Part shown: one piece after another, positions 1 through 18,574 of the stretch | Layout: each line of letters begins with the position of its first letter | How positions within the stretch are numbered: position 1 is the first letter of the stretch | NCBI GenBank assembly: GCA_016183985.1 | Contig: JACPDN010000010.1 | Span: 1-64,000 of the forward strand | Direction: 5' to 3' | Length of the DNA: 64,000 nucleotides | DNA from: Pseudomonadota bacterium | GTDB taxonomy: Bacteria > Pseudomonadota > Alphaproteobacteria > Dongiales > Dongiaceae | Position numbers and translations under genes: made by a program | Notes under the pieces: model-generated | Told to the model about the DNA's origin: nothing | Databases searched by the model: none | Seen by the model: the letters and a program-made list of their open reading frames with translations, nothing else

Positions 1-182
1 CGCCGGATCCGATGCGGTGACCGGATTCCCCTTCGGTGCTGCAGGCAGCAGCACCCGTCACGGCCGAAACGCACGGCCGGCACAACTGCCCGAGCGGTGT
101 CGCGTGGGGATCTTGAGGAAGAGAAAACGGAGACCGGATGGGTGGGAAGAGGGGGCGCCAAGGGGCGGGTAACTGCCCGGAC
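1..182. other. Upstream stretch with no recognised gene
   Basis: I see no convincing coding frame, RNA gene or repeat family in this GC-rich stretch. It precedes the promoter of the ribosomal protein operon and may be the end of an unseen upstream unit. Confidence 0.4.
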
Positions 183-1844: not shown

Positions 1845-1884
1845 GCTTTGGGCCCTCCCCTTGCCAGATGTTCTTTTTCTGTTC

Positions 1885-1946: not shown

Positions 1947-3094
1947 ATGCCGCAGCCGTTCAATCAGCGTCCTTTGACCAAAACACCAAAGACCGCGAAC
2001 GAAAAGAATGAGCTTGGAGGATGGAAGGACGGACGCTTCATCTTCGACTCCCCCGAAGCCGAGGTAACCTGGCATCAGCGCGCCTATGCCCAAGGGATTC
2101 ATCCGCAGGATTGGCATCGCGGCCGCGAGGTCGACGCTGAAACGGCAAAGCTCGTAGAAGCTGGCATGGCCGGTGCCACCCCACCCATTATCGCGGGCCG
2201 GATGGCACGCCGCGCTTCGGCAATCAGCACACCATCGAACCGCCGGCCCAGCGCGCCCTGCGCCAGCGCTCCTTTGCCGGCAAAACGCTGGATCAGATCG
2301 ACGCCATTCACCGCAGCACGGGCAAACTGCCGGGCGAGGACGAAGCCGCCGCGCTGACATTTGGGAACGACAATCAACCGCCGCACGGGTTGCTCGATCC
2401 CGCCACCGTTTCGGCGCATTCAGCAGCAATTCTCGCGGGCATGCAGCGCGGGCGCCAAAGCGATCCTCTCATCACGGGCAAAGTCGCCCAAGCTACGACG
2501 CCGACCAGAGATATCGTGCCGGCCAACGATTTTGCGAAGCTTTCGCAGACTGGCGCGGCTAATGTCATGCCGCAACCGCGCGCCACGCGGGCGCCGCTGC
2601 CGCGCAAGATGCCGACAGCCCCGATCGACGCGCCCCGAATGGCCGAGCTACTGGTCTTTCAGCCCATCAGCAACGGCAGATCGTCCTTCGGGCATGTGGC
2701 CATCGACATCGATGGCACGATCTATTCATGGACTCCCGGGGGATTGTTCGTCACCACGAAGGATGACTACCTCAAGAAGAACGCCTTTCGCGACGGCACG
2801 GGATATCCCTTGAGATTGACCGACCAGGAGGCAAAAAAACTCAAGCAGCACATCCTCAATTTCGGCCAAAAGGAACACTATAACTTCGTGACGGCAAACT
2901 GTACCGATCCCATCGAGGAAGGGCTGGAGGCTCTGGGTTATCAGGTGGGACTTACCATTCTGCCGGCACAGCTCAAGGCAGCAATCATGCAGAGTCACTT
3001 GGCGAGCATAGATAGATCGAACGACTACCCCGCCGATCCTGCACAGAAATCATCCGCGGCAACAATGCCGTGGTCGTTACTATCGATGCCCTGA
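1947..3094 (+). pseudogene. Frame-disrupted permuted-papain-like (LRAT/NlpC-type) protein
   Basis: The gene starts at ATG 1947 with GGAG 7 nt upstream. It reads in one frame to about 2195 (ending ATPPIIA) and continues sensibly one base back (GPDGTPRFGNQHTIE...) to the stop at 3094. One missing G in the run at 2195-2197 explains the break; restored, it would encode 382 residues. The C-terminal part has a His in FGHVAIDIDG (codon 2693) and a Cys in NCTDPIEEGL (codon 2900). That His-then-Cys order is typical of circularly permuted NlpC/P60 (LRAT/YiiX-like) hydrolases. The N-terminal half is Pro/Gln-rich and unrecognised. It could be a real pseudogene, a programmed -1 shift or a sequencing error. 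The downstream membrane EF-hand gene is probably co-transcribed. Confidence 0.6.
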
Positions 3095-3107
3095 CGGGAG
3101 ACATCTT

Positions 3108-3440
3108 ATGCCCATCTATGCGCAGCAGACTCGGAAAGCCGGTTTCGGCAAGATCCTATGGTTCACGCTCGGCCTGACGATCGGTGTCGTCATCACCCTG
3201 TTCTTCGCCAATCTGGTCCTGCGAAGTGGCCACACTTATGCAGAGATGGATTGGAACGGGGACGGGGACACATCACTCGACGAGATGCTTCATTCGGTCG
3301 ATGTGGGCGTGCGATCCGTCGAAGTCAGTGGTTGCCCGTGCCGTTTTTTCTTTGAATACAAGGACGGGCGGCCCATCAAGACCATGTGCGATGGCAAGGT
3401 CGTCGATTTTGATCCCTATGCGCCCACAGTTGGCCCATAG
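3108..3440 (+). CDS. Membrane-anchored EF-hand protein of unknown function
   Basis: The 110-residue protein has one N-terminal transmembrane helix (about residues 14-34, ILWFTLGLTIGVVITLFF) and then a periplasmic part. A textbook 12-residue calcium-binding EF-hand loop, DWNGDGDTSLDE, follows at about residues 48-59. Three Cys occur in the C-terminal half (GCPCRFFF and MCDGK). GGGAG lies 7 nt before the ATG, and the gene starts 13 nt after the disrupted upstream gene. A single EF-hand with a membrane anchor suggests a calcium-responsive periplasmic accessory or inhibitor protein. An immunity-like role for the neighbour is only a hypothesis. Confidence 0.7.
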   Translation: MPIYAQQTRKAGFGKILWFTLGLTIGVVITLFFANLVLRSGHTYAEMDWNGDGDTSLDEMLHSVDVGVRSVEVSGCPCRFFFEYKDGRPIKTMCDGKVVDFDPYAPTVGP

Positions 3441-9583: not shown

Positions 9584-11077
9584 ATGGCTAAGCCCGTGCG
9601 CAATTATGTCTGCCAGACCTGCGGGTCGGCCTTTCCGAAATGGGCCGGTAAGTGCGAGGCGTGCGGGGCGTGGAACTCGATCGTCGAGGAACCCGTGAGC
9701 AGCGGCGACGTGCCCAAGGGCCTCAGCGGCAAGCGCGGCAAGGGCGTTACCTTCGTGGCGCTCGATGGCGATGTGCCGCAGACGATCCGCCGGCCGACCG
9801 GCATGGCGGAATTCGACCGCGTGACCGGCGGCGGATTGGTGCGTGGCTCGGCGGTCCTCATCGGCGGCGATCCCGGCATCGGCAAATCGACCCTGATGCT
9901 GCAGGTGGCGACGATGCTGCGCGGCATCCGCGTCGCCTATATCTCGGGCGAAGAGGCGATCGAGCAGGTGCAGCTCCGCGCCAAGCGCCTTGGCGTCGGT
10001 GCCGATGAGAACCGCAAGGTCAGCGAGATCACAACCGAGCTCGCGGCCGCCACATCCTTGCGCGACATCATGGCAAGCCTCGACCGGCCGGATTGCCCCG
10101 AGATCGTCGTCATCGATTCGATCCAGACGCTCTATCTCGACAGCCTCGATTCGGCACCGGGTACCGTGGCGCAGGTGCGGACCTGCTCGGCCGAGCTTAT
10201 TCGTCTCGCCAAATCGCGTGGGTTCACCTTGCTGCTGGTCGGCCACGTCACCAAGGAAGGCCAGATTGCCGGCCCCCGCGTGCTGGAGCATATGGTCGAC
10301 ACGGTGCTCTATTTCGAAGGCGAGCGCGGGCATCACTTCCGCATCCTGCGCTCGGTCAAGAATCGCTTCGGTCCGGCCAATGAAATCGGCGTCTTCGAGA
10401 TGTCGGATCGGGGCCTCGCCGAAGTGCCCAACCCGTCGGCCCTGTTCCTCGCCGAACGGCACGGCAATATTTCCGGCGTCTCGGTCTTTGCCGGCATCGA
10501 GGGAACGCGCCCCGTGCTGGTCGAGGTGCAGGCGCTGGTCTCGCCCTCGCCGCTCGCCACACCGCGCCGTGCGGTCGTGGGTTGGGACAATGCCCGCATG
10601 GCGATGATCCTCGCTGTCCTCGAGACGCGCTGCGGACTGGGCCTCGCGGGGAGCGAAGTCTATCTCAACATCGCTGGCGGCCTGCGGATCTCGGAACCGG
10701 CGGCGGATCTCTCGGTCGCCCTGGCGCTGGTTTCCTCGCTCTCCGACCGGCCGGCGCCTTCGGACCTCATCGCCTTTGGCGAGATCGGCCTTTCCGGCGA
10801 GGTGCGCATGGTGGCGCAGGCGGAAACGCGCCTCAAGGAAGCCGCAAAACTCGGCTTCAAGCGGGCGATTCTCCCCAAACGCCTGTCCCAGGCCGGGGGC
10901 AAGCCGCTCAAAGTGGGCGGAATCCAACTCATTGAAATCGGCCATCTGCAAGAGATGATCGATTGGCTCTATAATGAAGTGCGCTCCAATGCGCTGGCTG
11001 CAACCGTTAGTGCCAGCCGCGCTCAACACCAAGGTAGCCAGGCATTGGGCCAGCAGGCAGGAGATAAGGTCCGTTGA
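9584..11077 (+). CDS. radA: DNA repair protein RadA
   Basis: RadA is a RecA-like, DnaB-type branch-migration helicase used in recombination. The 497-residue product has a complete C4 zinc finger (Cys10, 13, 24, 27), Walker A GGDPGIGKST, the RadA-specific motif KNRFG, and a C-terminal Lon-like domain (ALALVSSLSDRP, AFGEIGLSGEVR). The only candidate ribosome-binding site before ATG 9584 is the G-rich end of the upstream inverted-repeat element. The stop overlaps the cvpA TTG start by 4 nt, so the two are coupled. Confidence 0.96.
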   Translation: MAKPVRNYVCQTCGSAFPKWAGKCEACGAWNSIVEEPVSSGDVPKGLSGKRGKGVTFVALDGDVPQTIRRPTGMAEFDRVTGGGLVRGSAVLIGGDPGIGKSTLMLQVATMLRGIRVAYISGEEAIEQVQLRAKRLGVGADENRKVSEITTELAAATSLRDIMASLDRPDCPEIVVIDSIQTLYLDSLDSAPGTVAQVRTCSAELIRLAKSRGFTLLLVGHVTKEGQIAGPRVLEHMVDTVLYFEGERGHHFRILRSVKNRFGPANEIGVFEMSDRGLAEVPNPSALFLAERHGNISGVSVFAGIEGTRPVLVEVQALVSPSPLATPRRAVVGWDNARMAMILAVLETRCGLGLAGSEVYLNIAGGLRISEPAADLSVALALVSSLSDRPAPSDLIAFGEIGLSGEVRMVAQAETRLKEAAKLGFKRAILPKRLSQAGGKPLKVGGIQLIEIGHLQEMIDWLYNEVRSNALAATVSASRAQHQGSQALGQQAGDKVR

Positions 11078-15712: not shown

Positions 15713-17050
15713 CTATTTCAGGGCGTCCTTGATGCCATAGGCCATATAGGCGCCGCGCAGATAAAGCGGCCGCAGGAAGGGGAGCGGGAATCTGGGCGGC
15801 GGGCGGCGGATGAAGTTCGGCCGCTCCTCAGGCCCACCCATCATGGCGCGGGCGGCGGCGCGGCCCGACCAGGTGCCCATGGCCACACCATTGCCATGAT
15901 AGCACATGGCGAAATAGACGCCGGGCTGCTCGTCCCAGGCACCGACATGCGGCACCAGATCCTGCGCCAGGCAAAGGAGGCCCGACCAGCGATGCGTGAT
16001 CTCGACATGGCGCCATTCCGGGTAATAGGCGCGGAAAGCGGCTTCGATATTATCCAGCTGCCGGTCGATGGCACCAGGTTCGGCCGACAAGCCACCGCGG
16101 CCGCCGAACATCATGCGGCCATCGGGCAGCAGGCGGAAATAATGCAGCAGATAGCGCAGGTCATAGACCGGCGTGGTGCTGGTCCAGCCTTGCGCGCCAA
16201 GCTCGTTCTGGTTCATCGGCCGCGTCACCCCGATCGAGGACAAAGCCGGCAGAACGCGCCCGCCGTAATCAGGATGGAGATCCTCGGCCGTGTAGCCGGC
16301 AGTCGCGAGCAGCACCTTGTTCGCCTTCACCCGGCCGCGCGGCGTCACCAGGATGTGTTTCGAACCTTCGCGCGACCAGTTGATGACCTCGCTCTTGGCA
16401 TAGATCCTGGCGCCGGCCTTTGAGGCAGCGGCAGCAAGGCCGTTCACATATTTCCACGGGTTGAGGCCGAAGCCCACGGGATTGGCGACACCGGCATGAA
16501 GCTCCGGCGAGTTGAGGCCCTGCTCGACCAATTGCTCCTTGCTGACGAAGACTTCCTCGGCACCGAAATTCTTCGCCATGAAGGCGGCATCTTCCTTCAA
16601 GGCGTCGATCATCGTCGTCTTGTGGGCCAGCGAGATTTCGCCGATGCCCGTCTTGTCGATATCGAGATTCTCGCGCGCCACGATGTCGGCCACCAATTCG
16701 ACGGACGCCTTTTGACTACGCCAAAAAACTTGGGCTTCCTCGAGGCCGAACTTCTCGATCATCTTGCCCCAGGGCATCTTCGAGGAGCCCATGCAGCAGA
16801 AGCCGCCATTGCGACCCGAGGCACCCCAGCCGATATAGGAGCGCTCCAGCACCACCGCTTGGACATTGTGATCGCGCTGCAGGTGATAGGCGGCCGACAA
16901 CCCCGTGAAGCCGCCGCCGATAATGGCGACATCGGTCTCGATCTCGCCTTCAAGCTCGGGATAGCCCGGGAAGTCTGTCTTCGAATCGCGCCACCAGCTC
17001 TTCACCGGATTGTCGGTATCGAGGGCGCTCGGGTGATAGAGATGCTTCAT
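15713..17050 (-). CDS. FAD-dependent amine oxidoreductase, PuuB/DadA-like
   Basis: The 445-residue protein has the N-terminal dinucleotide motif IIGGGFTGLSAAYHL (about residues 44-58) and RNGGFC, a layout shared by gamma-glutamylputrescine oxidase and other DAO-family oxidases. The N-terminal NPVKSWW is typical of the PuuB group. It probably oxidises a primary or secondary amine to an aldehyde that the adjacent aldehyde dehydrogenase (12 nt upstream in the operon) then converts. The exact substrate cannot be read from sequence; no PuuA-like ligase is seen in the window. Confidence 0.85.
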   Translation of the reverse strand: MKHLYHPSALDTDNPVKSWWRDSKTDFPGYPELEGEIETDVAIIGGGFTGLSAAYHLQRDHNVQAVVLERSYIGWGASGRNGGFCCMGSSKMPWGKMIEKFGLEEAQVFWRSQKASVELVADIVARENLDIDKTGIGEISLAHKTTMIDALKEDAAFMAKNFGAEEVFVSKEQLVEQGLNSPELHAGVANPVGFGLNPWKYVNGLAAAASKAGARIYAKSEVINWSREGSKHILVTPRGRVKANKVLLATAGYTAEDLHPDYGGRVLPALSSIGVTRPMNQNELGAQGWTSTTPVYDLRYLLHYFRLLPDGRMMFGGRGGLSAEPGAIDRQLDNIEAAFRAYYPEWRHVEITHRWSGLLCLAQDLVPHVGAWDEQPGVYFAMCYHGNGVAMGTWSGRAAARAMMGGPEERPNFIRRPPPRFPLPFLRPLYLRGAYMAYGIKDALK

Positions 17051-17062
17051 GATATTCCGTCC

Positions 17063-18574
17063 TTAACCCCAGCGGCCGCCCCGCTCGGCATAGAAACCTT
17101 CCGAATAAGGATACCACCAGGATTGCAGTTCCGCCTTCGGATCCAGCATGATCATTTTCGATTGCCGGAATGCGTTTAGCCCCAAGCGCGAGAGCGAGCG
17201 GCCCAAACCGGAGAGTTTCCAGCCGCCGAAGGGCAGCGCGTCATTGTCGCCCAGCACGTTGTTGACCCAGATCATGCCCGCCTCAAGGCGGTCCGTTGCC
17301 GCAATGGCTTCGTCGAGCTTCGCGGTGAAGATCGAAGCGCCGAGGCCGAAGCGGGAGGCGTTGGCGAGGTCGATGGCCTCGTCGAAGCTGCGGACGCGGA
17401 TGATGGGAGCGACGGGCCCGAACATCTCGGCCTGCATCAGATCCATCTCCGGTGTCACGCCGGTGAGGATGGTGGGCTCGTAGAACCAGCCGATGTTGAA
17501 GGCGGGCGGGATGCGCCCGCCGCAGCCGATCTTGGCGCCTTGCGCCACCGCCTGGTCGACGAGGCGCATGACCTTGGCGCGGGCGGCTTCCGAGACCAGC
17601 GGGCCCAGTTCCACATTGCCGAGGCCCGGGCCGATGCGTAGAGCCTTGGTCCGTCCAATCATGGCGCCCACGAAGGCATCATGCACCTTCTCATGCACGA
17701 AGATGCGCTCGGTCGAGGTGCAGATCTGGCCGGAGAGATGGAAGGCGCCGGTGACGGCAGCAGCAGCAGCAATCTCGGGATCGGCGCTGTCCATGACGAT
17801 CATCGGATCGGACCCCCCGGCCTCAATCACGCAAGGCTTCAGCAGCTTGCCGCAGCTCGCTGCCACATCGCGGCCGGCTTCGACCGAGCCGGTGAAGGCC
17901 ACGGCACCGATGCGGGCATCATTGATGAGCGCCTTCGCCGTGTCGACGCCGCCGGTGACGCAGGAAACGACACCGGCGGGGAGCGCCTTGAAATGCTCCA
18001 TGAAGGCAAGCGTCGAGAGCGAGGTTGCGGGTGCCGGCTTGATCACCACGGCATTGCCCGCAGCCAATGACGCTGCAACCGTGAAAGCCATCAGGATGAT
18101 CGGGAAATTGTAGGGGACGATATGCGCGGTGATTCCGTAAGGATACCAGCGCGCATATTGGAGCGACCCCGGCGCGGTGGGTGCCGCGACGAAGCCACCA
18201 TCCTCGCGCGCGAGTTCCGCATAGTAGCGGAAGATCGGCGCCACGTTGAGGAGCTCGCCCACGGATTCGGTAAAGGGCTTCCCCATCTCGCGCGTCATCA
18301 GTTCGGCAGCGGGACCGGCGGTCGCGTGCTCCATCGCATCGGCAAGACGGTGGAGGGCGGCGGCCCGGCTCTTGCCGTCGAGCCTCGCCCATTCGATTTG
18401 CGCGGCCTTGGCTTGGGTCAGCACGGCATCAAGGGTGGCCTGCCCGCATTGCGCCACCGTGCCGACCGTGGAGAGATCGGCCGGGTTCTTGACCTCGACA
18501 AGTGTCGCACCGGCAGCGGCGACGTGATCGTTGCCGAGGAAGATCTGGCCGAGGGTGGGGTCGAAGGTGGACAT
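17063..18574 (-). CDS. NAD(P)-dependent aldehyde dehydrogenase
   Basis: The 503-residue enzyme has the catalytic Cys285 in LSGQICTSTER and general base Glu251 in VIEAGGSDPM. FTGSVEAG is the cofactor-binding segment and PYNFPIIL the N-terminal binding motif. I chose ATG 18574 (MSTFDPTLG) because upstream in-frame codons run through a palindromic element and look non-coding. In the context of a polyamine importer and an amine oxidase it would oxidise an aminoaldehyde or succinate semialdehyde. Substrate assignment is inference from context. Confidence 0.9.
   Translation of the reverse strand: MSTFDPTLGQIFLGNDHVAAAGATLVEVKNPADLSTVGTVAQCGQATLDAVLTQAKAAQIEWARLDGKSRAAALHRLADAMEHATAGPAAELMTREMGKPFTESVGELLNVAPIFRYYAELAREDGGFVAAPTAPGSLQYARWYPYGITAHIVPYNFPIILMAFTVAASLAAGNAVVIKPAPATSLSTLAFMEHFKALPAGVVSCVTGGVDTAKALINDARIGAVAFTGSVEAGRDVAASCGKLLKPCVIEAGGSDPMIVMDSADPEIAAAAAVTGAFHLSGQICTSTERIFVHEKVHDAFVGAMIGRTKALRIGPGLGNVELGPLVSEAARAKVMRLVDQAVAQGAKIGCGGRIPPAFNIGWFYEPTILTGVTPEMDLMQAEMFGPVAPIIRVRSFDEAIDLANASRFGLGASIFTAKLDEAIAATDRLEAGMIWVNNVLGDNDALPFGGWKLSGLGRSLSRLGLNAFRQSKMIMLDPKAELQSWWYPYSEGFYAERGGRWG

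What the first reader, a model, noticed from the sequence alone, without database searches (positions are those of the whole stretch)
1947..3440. Frame-disrupted permuted-papain-like protein next to a membrane EF-hand protein
Reading frames on either side of about 2195 join into one 382-residue protein if a single G is restored. The C-terminal half has a His-then-Cys order typical of permuted NlpC/P60 (LRAT-like) hydrolases. The next gene encodes a one-helix protein with a perfect EF-hand loop. The pair sits alone between core operons behind an AT-rich promoter, which fits an acquired toxin/partner pair, but that role is unproven.
Basis: partly seen in the sequence, partly recalled or inferred. 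Interest (0 to 1): 0.55.

Follow-up and report, generated by a model that had tools for sequence, protein, structure and literature searches.

The report
Broken toxin gene with immunity partner
In a bacterium of the genus Dongia this is a damaged copy of what looks like a bacteria-against-bacteria toxin gene beside its calcium-binding membrane immunity gene; it belongs to a toxin family that seems to be switched on by DNA damage and whose way of reaching other cells is unknown.

Summary
The gene at 1947-3094 is one gene split over two frames; the break lies inside an N-terminal module of about 114 residues. The C-terminal part (2630-3091) is a permuted NlpC/P60 domain: Pfam Lnb_N, His then Cys, and a model resembling T6SS effector TseH. 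The EF-hand protein is its partner: both genes are neighbours in two other Dongia genomes, and in four Pseudomonas plasmid records the same domain lies in an Rhs-annotated gene with the EF-hand match adjoining it. So it is very likely a toxin/immunity pair, probably lipid-attacking in the periplasm (inferred).

The module defines a polymorphic-toxin family seen only in this genus: 20 genes collected, with several toxin ends including a CdiA-type RNase, mostly followed by matched partners. And 13 of 20 carry an exact GTTC-N7-GTTC box (alphaproteobacterial LexA/SOS motif) in the promoter zone; lexA has one too, but so do unrelated intergenic repeats. T6SS and contractile-sheath marker genes are absent from seven Dongia genomes, so the toxins resemble SOS-induced bacteriocins; delivery is unknown. 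The window copy looks recently inactivated (3 of 5 family genes here are split, 0 of 17 neighbours), but sequencing error is not excluded.

The parts
1870..1884 (+). GTTC-N7-GTTC direct repeat, LexA (SOS) box of the alphaproteobacterial type
   Evidence: only exact match in the 64 kb window (1.6 expected by chance, so its place and not its presence is the point); same element in the promoter zone of 13 of 20 family genes; motif from a passage of PMC8565304
1885..1890 (+). TTGACA, -35-like hexamer abutting the box
   Evidence: sequence; the consensus scan found 0 complete sigma-70 promoters
1947..2198 (+). first frame of the toxin gene: short leader and first half of the N-terminal module (profile positions 1-64 at 2007-2198)
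2174..2353 (+). second half of the module (profile positions 57-111), in another frame; the break lies about the overlap 2174-2198
2180..3094 (+). second frame of the toxin gene: end of module, linker, C-terminal domain, stop
2630..3091 (+). C-terminal toxin domain, permuted NlpC/P60 (Lnb_N/DUF4105-like); His codon 2693-2695, Cys codon 2900-2902
   Evidence: Pfam PF13387, alignment A5, model m39a74b6b91ef and structural matches
3108..3440 (+). partner: one N-terminal membrane helix (residues 16-34), then an EF-hand loop (3249-3284) and a conserved Cys pair; predicted immunity protein

Best explanation
The locus is a toxin/immunity pair of a polymorphic-toxin family whose N-terminal module was found only in the genus Dongia. 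Intact members are repressed by LexA and made after DNA damage (inferred from the box). The module and linker carry the toxin out of the producer and/or into a target (inferred, route unknown), and the C-terminal domain does the damage. Here that domain is a permuted NlpC/P60 enzyme, most likely a phospholipase or acyl-transferring enzyme acting at the periplasmic face of the target membrane, as reported for the related Tox-Act1 (inferred by relationship). The EF-hand protein, anchored with its Ca-binding part outside, protects the producer (inferred). The window copy is broken inside the module while the toxin domain, box and partner are preserved, so it is probably a recently inactivated toxin whose immunity gene still serves.
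For: Both genes occur together in 3 of 7 Dongia genomes and in none of 54 further relatives; they adjoin in 4 of 4 plasmid records that hold the domain; the one other phylum-sample genome with the domain has it at an Rhs-type end (Rhs recognised by eye). Module shared with other toxin ends: RNAse_A_bac, CHAP-like below cut-off, and a family followed by 232-240-aa partners in 7 genes. Box: 13 of 20 genes, only 3 other exact boxes in 282.5 kb; lexA 5 of 5; one-mismatch box at 4 of 4 full-length recA. Fold: 3kw0 Z 10.7, TseH Z 9.6. Tox-Act1 precedent: passages of PMC12994826. Real decay: 3 of 5 family genes in G000 split against 0 of 17 neighbours, Fisher p 0.0065.
Against: No experiment. The 20 promoters are related, so the box count is not 20 independent events, and the zone was chosen after seeing the sequences. 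recA has no exact box. In G000 only 3 of 16 sites of the stricter box pattern are at module genes and 1 at a doubled-module gene; 8 lead multicopy intergenic repeats and 4 lie elsewhere; G004, which has no module gene, has 11 such sites. No delivery system, receptor domain or lysis gene was identified. Nine other genomes have an EF-hand relative without this toxin domain in 1.5 kb flanks, and L137 has no EF-hand partner in its flank. The C-domain model rests on 4 sequences (pLDDT 76), and Foldseek alone gave no match under 1e-3.
Confidence: 0.6

Rival explanations
1. The frame break in the window is a sequencing or assembly error and the gene is intact in the living strain; everything else stands.
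For: The reads could not be seen. The compared pieces differ between G000 and G003 less by amino-acid changes than by silent ones, so the break, if real, is recent. The orthologue in the fragmented assembly G003 is also broken.
Against: 17 of 17 comparable neighbouring genes in G000 are in one frame while 3 of 5 family genes are split; the three breaks inside the module (window, L003, L043) lie at different places and not in long single-base runs.
Confidence: 0.25
2. The family is intracellular: SOS-triggered toxins that kill or stall the producer itself, for example after phage infection, rather than being delivered to neighbours.
For: No export route was found; SOS control suits a damage response.
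Against: Partners with an N-terminal membrane helix (this one by hydropathy; the partner of the CHAP-like gene L043 by eye) suggest toxins acting in the periplasm; the toxin ends are those of delivered Rhs and CdiA proteins; no PADLOC match in 7 proteins.
Confidence: 0.15
3. The C-domain is a housekeeping Lnb-type lipoprotein acyltransferase and the EF-hand protein a helper.
For: The only Pfam hit is Lnb_N; passages of PMC12994826 report Lnb as the Bacteroides lipoprotein N-acyltransferase.
Against: Found in 3 of 7 Dongia genomes and 2 of 398 genomes of the phylum sample; attached to toxin modules and Rhs-type proteins.
Confidence: 0.04
4. The partner is not an immunity protein but a lysis or release factor for the toxin.
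For: Small membrane protein directly behind an SOS-type toxin gene, near the place of lysis genes in colicin operons (recalled).
Against: In 61 relatives it occurs only beside this toxin type, and it adjoins the same domain in an Rhs setting; other toxin types have other partners, whereas a lysis factor would be shared.
Confidence: 0.08

Closest known systems
Tox-Act1/Imm-Act1 (Salmonella T6SS, PMC12994826; passages seen)
   Same: permuted NlpC/P60 toxin domain related to DUF4105/Lnb, His then Cys, adjacent gene for a membrane immunity protein
   Different: T6SS-delivered; Imm-Act1 has two membrane helices, here one helix plus EF-hand; no T6SS marker in Dongia; membership in the Tox-Act1 clade not tested by a tree
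Rhs-annotated gene with the same domain and an adjoining EF-hand match on Pseudomonas amygdali plasmids
   Same: same toxin domain (32.9% identity) and same partner (33.7%) side by side
   Different: Rhs delivery part instead of the Dongia module; region not fetched, so the exact domain layout was not read
CDI and other polymorphic toxin systems (PMC3482391; passages seen)
   Same: constant N-terminus, exchangeable toxin ends, matched partner genes, a many-copy partner array (G006)
   Different: no recognised leader domain or secretion system; LexA-type box
Colicins and nuclease bacteriocins (PMC5536347, and PMC6240691; passages seen)
   Same: SOS control (here by box only), toxin followed by immunity gene, mid-sized proteins (211-675 aa here)
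   Different: not gammaproteobacterial; no receptor or translocation domain recognised; PMC5536347 reports nuclease bacteriocins only in gammaproteobacteria

Membership tests
Polymorphic toxin system | constant N-terminal part with differing C-terminal toxin domains | tested here: met
   module A1 with Lnb-like, RNase A, CHAP-like and other ends
Polymorphic toxin system | adjacent gene whose type follows the toxin domain | tested here: met
   17 of 17 module genes examined have a same-strand ORF of at least 60 aa at the stop: 7 of the 232-240-aa family, 2 with the RNase A ends, 1 SUKH-like (below cut-off), 1 with a membrane helix behind the CHAP-like end, 3 larger (312-357 aa) behind L049-L051; in L040 it is the split-off toxin end, and for L056 and L058 the type is unclear. 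The EF-hand partner follows 3 of 3 Lnb-like ends
Polymorphic toxin system | a recognised export route | tested here: inconclusive
   T6SS VipB 0 of 7, contractile sheath 0 of 7, VirB4 2 of 7 Dongia genomes; other routes not searched
T6SS effector | T6SS in the genome | tested here: not met
   PF05943 absent from G000 and six congeners, found in the control E. coli and in G008; one marker only
Permuted NlpC/P60 (Lnb/DUF4105, LRAT-like) | profile match and permuted papain-like fold, His before Cys | tested here: met
Tox-Act1 phospholipase toxins | phospholipase activity and place in the Tox-Act1 clade | not tested
   activity needs a bench test; no tree was built
EF-hand protein | canonical 12-residue calcium loop | tested here: met
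   in 3 of 3 Dongia partners, window included; profile hits in solved structures are calcium-binding proteins such as NCS-1, calcineurin B and aequorin, but only at E 0.06-1
Colicin-like bacteriocin | LexA control | tested here: met
   box in 13 of 20 promoter zones and at lexA; by motif only
Colicin-like bacteriocin | receptor and Ton/Tol translocation parts; release by lysis | not tested
   no test run here

The most novel reading that the evidence does not exclude
Dongia carries the first family of SOS-induced, colicin-type protein bacteriocins of Alphaproteobacteria: a new N-terminal module of about 114 residues serves as the release or uptake part, and toxin ends are exchanged with Rhs and CDI systems, with no T6SS involved.
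Probability: 0.35. Interest if true: 0.75.

Novelty: new variant of a known kind. Interest (0 to 1): 0.55.

Why it matters
PMC5536347 (passages) states that nuclease bacteriocins are found only in gammaproteobacteria and that the reason is unclear; an SOS-type family with CdiA-type RNase ends in an alphaproteobacterial genus without T6SS markers makes that question testable. The pair also points to a calcium-binding, membrane-anchored immunity type for NlpC/P60 toxins, and the module is a candidate new trafficking domain. Searches of the held open-licence papers that showed neither this family nor an SOS-controlled polymorphic toxin of this class: (most listed papers seen as listing only; passages of PMC6240691, PMC3482391 and PMC13384398 seen). 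Subscription papers are not in that library.

Tried and rejected
Rejected: housekeeping Lnb enzyme (too rare, and attached to toxin parts); phage origin of the pair (no match to the toxin domain in the phage collection, nor to a sister toxin; module not in viral contigs); stable-RNA promoters as the meaning of the box (no tRNA or Rfam match in 17 loci with non-toxin boxes); programmed frameshift (breaks differ in place between G000 and G003); phase variation (no long run at the breaks).

Led nowhere: NCBIfam, PHROGs and PADLOC for the window proteins (PHROGs gave only E 0.11 and 0.28); PDB sequence search for the C-domain and for an RNase-type partner; the full-length model of a sister toxin has pLDDT 55, with the module at about 64-87, and the structure look-ups barely covered the module, so its fold relation is unknown. 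A BFVD match to a phage protein (E 5e-4, TM 0.13) rests on that weak model. Linker hits to phrog_5880 and phrog_37988 (E 5e-6 to 4e-4, in 3 of 10 proteins) were not followed. A plasmid search with sister toxin L041 gave one record, a Fusobacterium match to its toxin end only. Papers on EF-hands in T6SS describe them in effectors, not immunity proteins (passages of PMC12992299 and PMC7283901).

Dropped before counts: the remnant L044:9739-9936 is not among the 20 genes; L093 and L070 were found through the box and are not in the box statistic; in the frame control 18 rows were found (flanks of window, L042, L040 and L041; none for L043), and the one with two frames is a pair of tandem partner genes and was taken out, leaving 17 (rows are best-scoring non-overlapping ORFs, not checked one by one). 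In one search the sixth segment was cut in the wrong frame for L003 and is not used. L003 is counted as a module gene from the frames and its match; the profile did not list it.

Full report
WHERE IT IS. The window lies on contig C2 of a 4.65 Mb genome, G000. Contigs of congeners agree in length with named records: G002:C19 (190306 bases, uncultured Dongia MAG), G003:C141 (10250 bases, Dongia mobilis MAG) and G001:C212 (4310 bases, titled only Rhodospirillaceae bacterium). Dongia belongs to Dongiaceae, Rhodospirillales. That G000 is of the same genus rests on the label.

THE BREAK. An HMM from nine intact relatives (A1) hits the window twice, at 2007-2198 for profile positions 1-64 and at 2174-2353 for positions 57-111, in different frames. 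The gene is therefore one gene split inside its N-terminal module. Between G000 and G003 the pieces are 43% (35 codons), 46% (138 codons) and 62% (C-domain, 154 codons) identical, with amino-acid-changing differences below silent ones, which are near or at saturation: the gene was kept for long and, if broken, broken recently. The orthologue behind rplI in G003 (L003) is also split in the module, elsewhere. In G000 three of the five A1-type genes are split (C2; C10 near 156 kb, CHAP-like; C1, where the toxin end lies in an overlapping separate ORF), against 0 of 17 neighbouring genes comparable with relatives at 80% identity or more (Fisher p 0.0065; the comparison was set up after the splits were seen). 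This speaks for real decay of toxin genes, though the reads cannot be seen, and for C1 a natural split with its own start is possible.

THE TOXIN DOMAIN. Residues coded by 2630-3091 match Lnb_N (PF13387, 29.4 bits, cut-off 22.2). His and Cys are invariant in the window and three relatives. The model (pLDDT 76, pTM 0.74) aligns to 3kw0, a Bacillus cereus cysteine peptidase (Z 10.7, 125 residues, 2.6 A; recalled as YiiX-like), to TseH, a T6SS effector (Z 9.6, 130 residues, 3.6 A), and to a MARTX effector domain (Z 7.0). Foldseek alone gave nothing under 1e-3. PMC12994826 (passages) reports that Tox-Act1, sister to DUF4105/Lnb, is a periplasm-acting phospholipase neutralised by a membrane immunity protein, and that permuted members tend to act on lipids. 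I infer the same kind of action here.

THE PARTNER. The 110-residue protein has a helix at 16-34 with three Lys/Arg and no acid before it, so its C-terminal part is predicted outside; the EF loop and a Cys pair are kept in 3 of 3 Dongia partners. In 61 relatives it occurs in three genomes only, next to the toxin domain each time. In plasmids the toxin domain hits four records and the partner hits the same four, in adjoining, slightly overlapping positions (for example 16477-16887 and 16851-17144), in an Rhs-annotated gene; a fifth partner hit (Xanthomonas, E 0.7) is not meaningful. In 398 genomes of the phylum sample the toxin domain occurs in two, G000 and G580; the latter is at the end of a protein whose Rhs-type core I recognised by eye, without an EF-hand partner in its flank. 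EF-hand relatives in nine other genomes do not sit beside this toxin domain in 1.5 kb flanks, so the EF-hand family is wider than this role.

THE FAMILY. The module is found in 4 of 385 class genomes, all of this genus, and in six of seven Dongia genomes by protein search (G004 has none). A pattern scan of the collection of 84,980 named genomes gave three loci, all on contigs that agree with G001, G002 and G003. The first window piece has no Pfam match at E 5. Twenty genes were collected: 19 with the module and the G006 gene L004 with a related doubled module (profile comparison 89% probability, E 2e-6). Ends include the CdiA RNase A domain (PF18431 at 1.9e-24 and 5.2e-21; structure 5e3e Z 12.3) and a CHAP-like domain below cut-off. 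Same-strand followers are listed: 14 of 17 look like partners, one is a split-off toxin end and two are unclear. G006 holds four copies of one partner type within 4.4 kb, with a module remnant between them, like the 'homogeneous polyimmunity' loci of PMC3482391 (passages).

CONTROL. Upstream of the genes I noticed GTTC-N7-GTTC next to a TTGACA-like hexamer. Exact boxes lie in the promoter zone of 13 of 20 genes; only 3 more occur in the rest of 288.5 kb (nominal p 3e-28, not independent because the genes are related, and the zone was set after looking). Six more genes have the box with one mismatch, which alone is weak; one (L054) has none. PMC8565304 (passage) gives GTTC-N7-GTTC as the LexA motif of Alphaproteobacteria. 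lexA itself has an exact box in 5 of 5 Dongia genomes; recA has none exact in 4 full-length copies, but a one-mismatch box in 4 of 4. Against specificity: the stricter pattern GTTCN5TTGTTC has 16 sites in G000 (3 for the reversed control), of which 3 are at module genes, 1 at a doubled-module gene, 8 at multicopy intergenic elements and 4 elsewhere; G004, without the module, has 11 (3 for the control). So the regulon is wider than the toxins. I conclude that the family is probably LexA-controlled.

DELIVERY. T6SS VipB is absent from 7 of 7 Dongia genomes, contractile sheath from 7 of 7, and VirB4 is present in 2 of 7, one of which (G004) lacks the module. With SOS-type control, a three-part build and an immunity gene, the nearest functional analogue is a colicin-type bacteriocin, but no receptor, Ton/Tol or lysis feature was tested. 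This is the open part of the finding.

VERDICT. The pair itself is a new member of a known kind; the module family under LexA-type control in a genus without T6SS markers is a new variant of a known kind.

Noticed in passing
window 1-180; L092, L099, L101, L103 (G000); L072, L087 (G006): The window starts inside a multicopy GC-rich intergenic element whose full copies are led by a GTTC-N7-GTTC-TTGACA promoter; no Rfam, tRNA or clear coding match. It may be an SOS-driven non-coding RNA.
   Followed up: partly
L044 8132-12485 (G006:C2): Four genes of one 230-234-residue partner family with a module remnant at 9739-9936: an orphan immunity array.
   Followed up: partly
L041 7522-8223 and 8289-8987 (G000:C10): Two tandem copies of the same partner family behind an intact module toxin.
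   Followed up: no
L093 (G000:C2 near 593 kb), L070 (G002:C4 near 858 kb): Proteins with a doubled, diverged form of the module behind an exact box; their reading frames run off the locus and the ends were not identified.
   Followed up: partly
L039:601-1236, L056:6079-6969: Short module proteins ending in a small cysteine-rich part with no Pfam family; possibly a new small toxin end.
   Followed up: no
L042, L053, L046 middle region: Linker between module and toxin end weakly matches phage families phrog_5880 and phrog_37988.
   Followed up: no
L061 (G005:C1:727761): Exact box before a gene that looks like an OLD/AAA ATPase (name from recognition), a plausible further SOS target.
   Followed up: no
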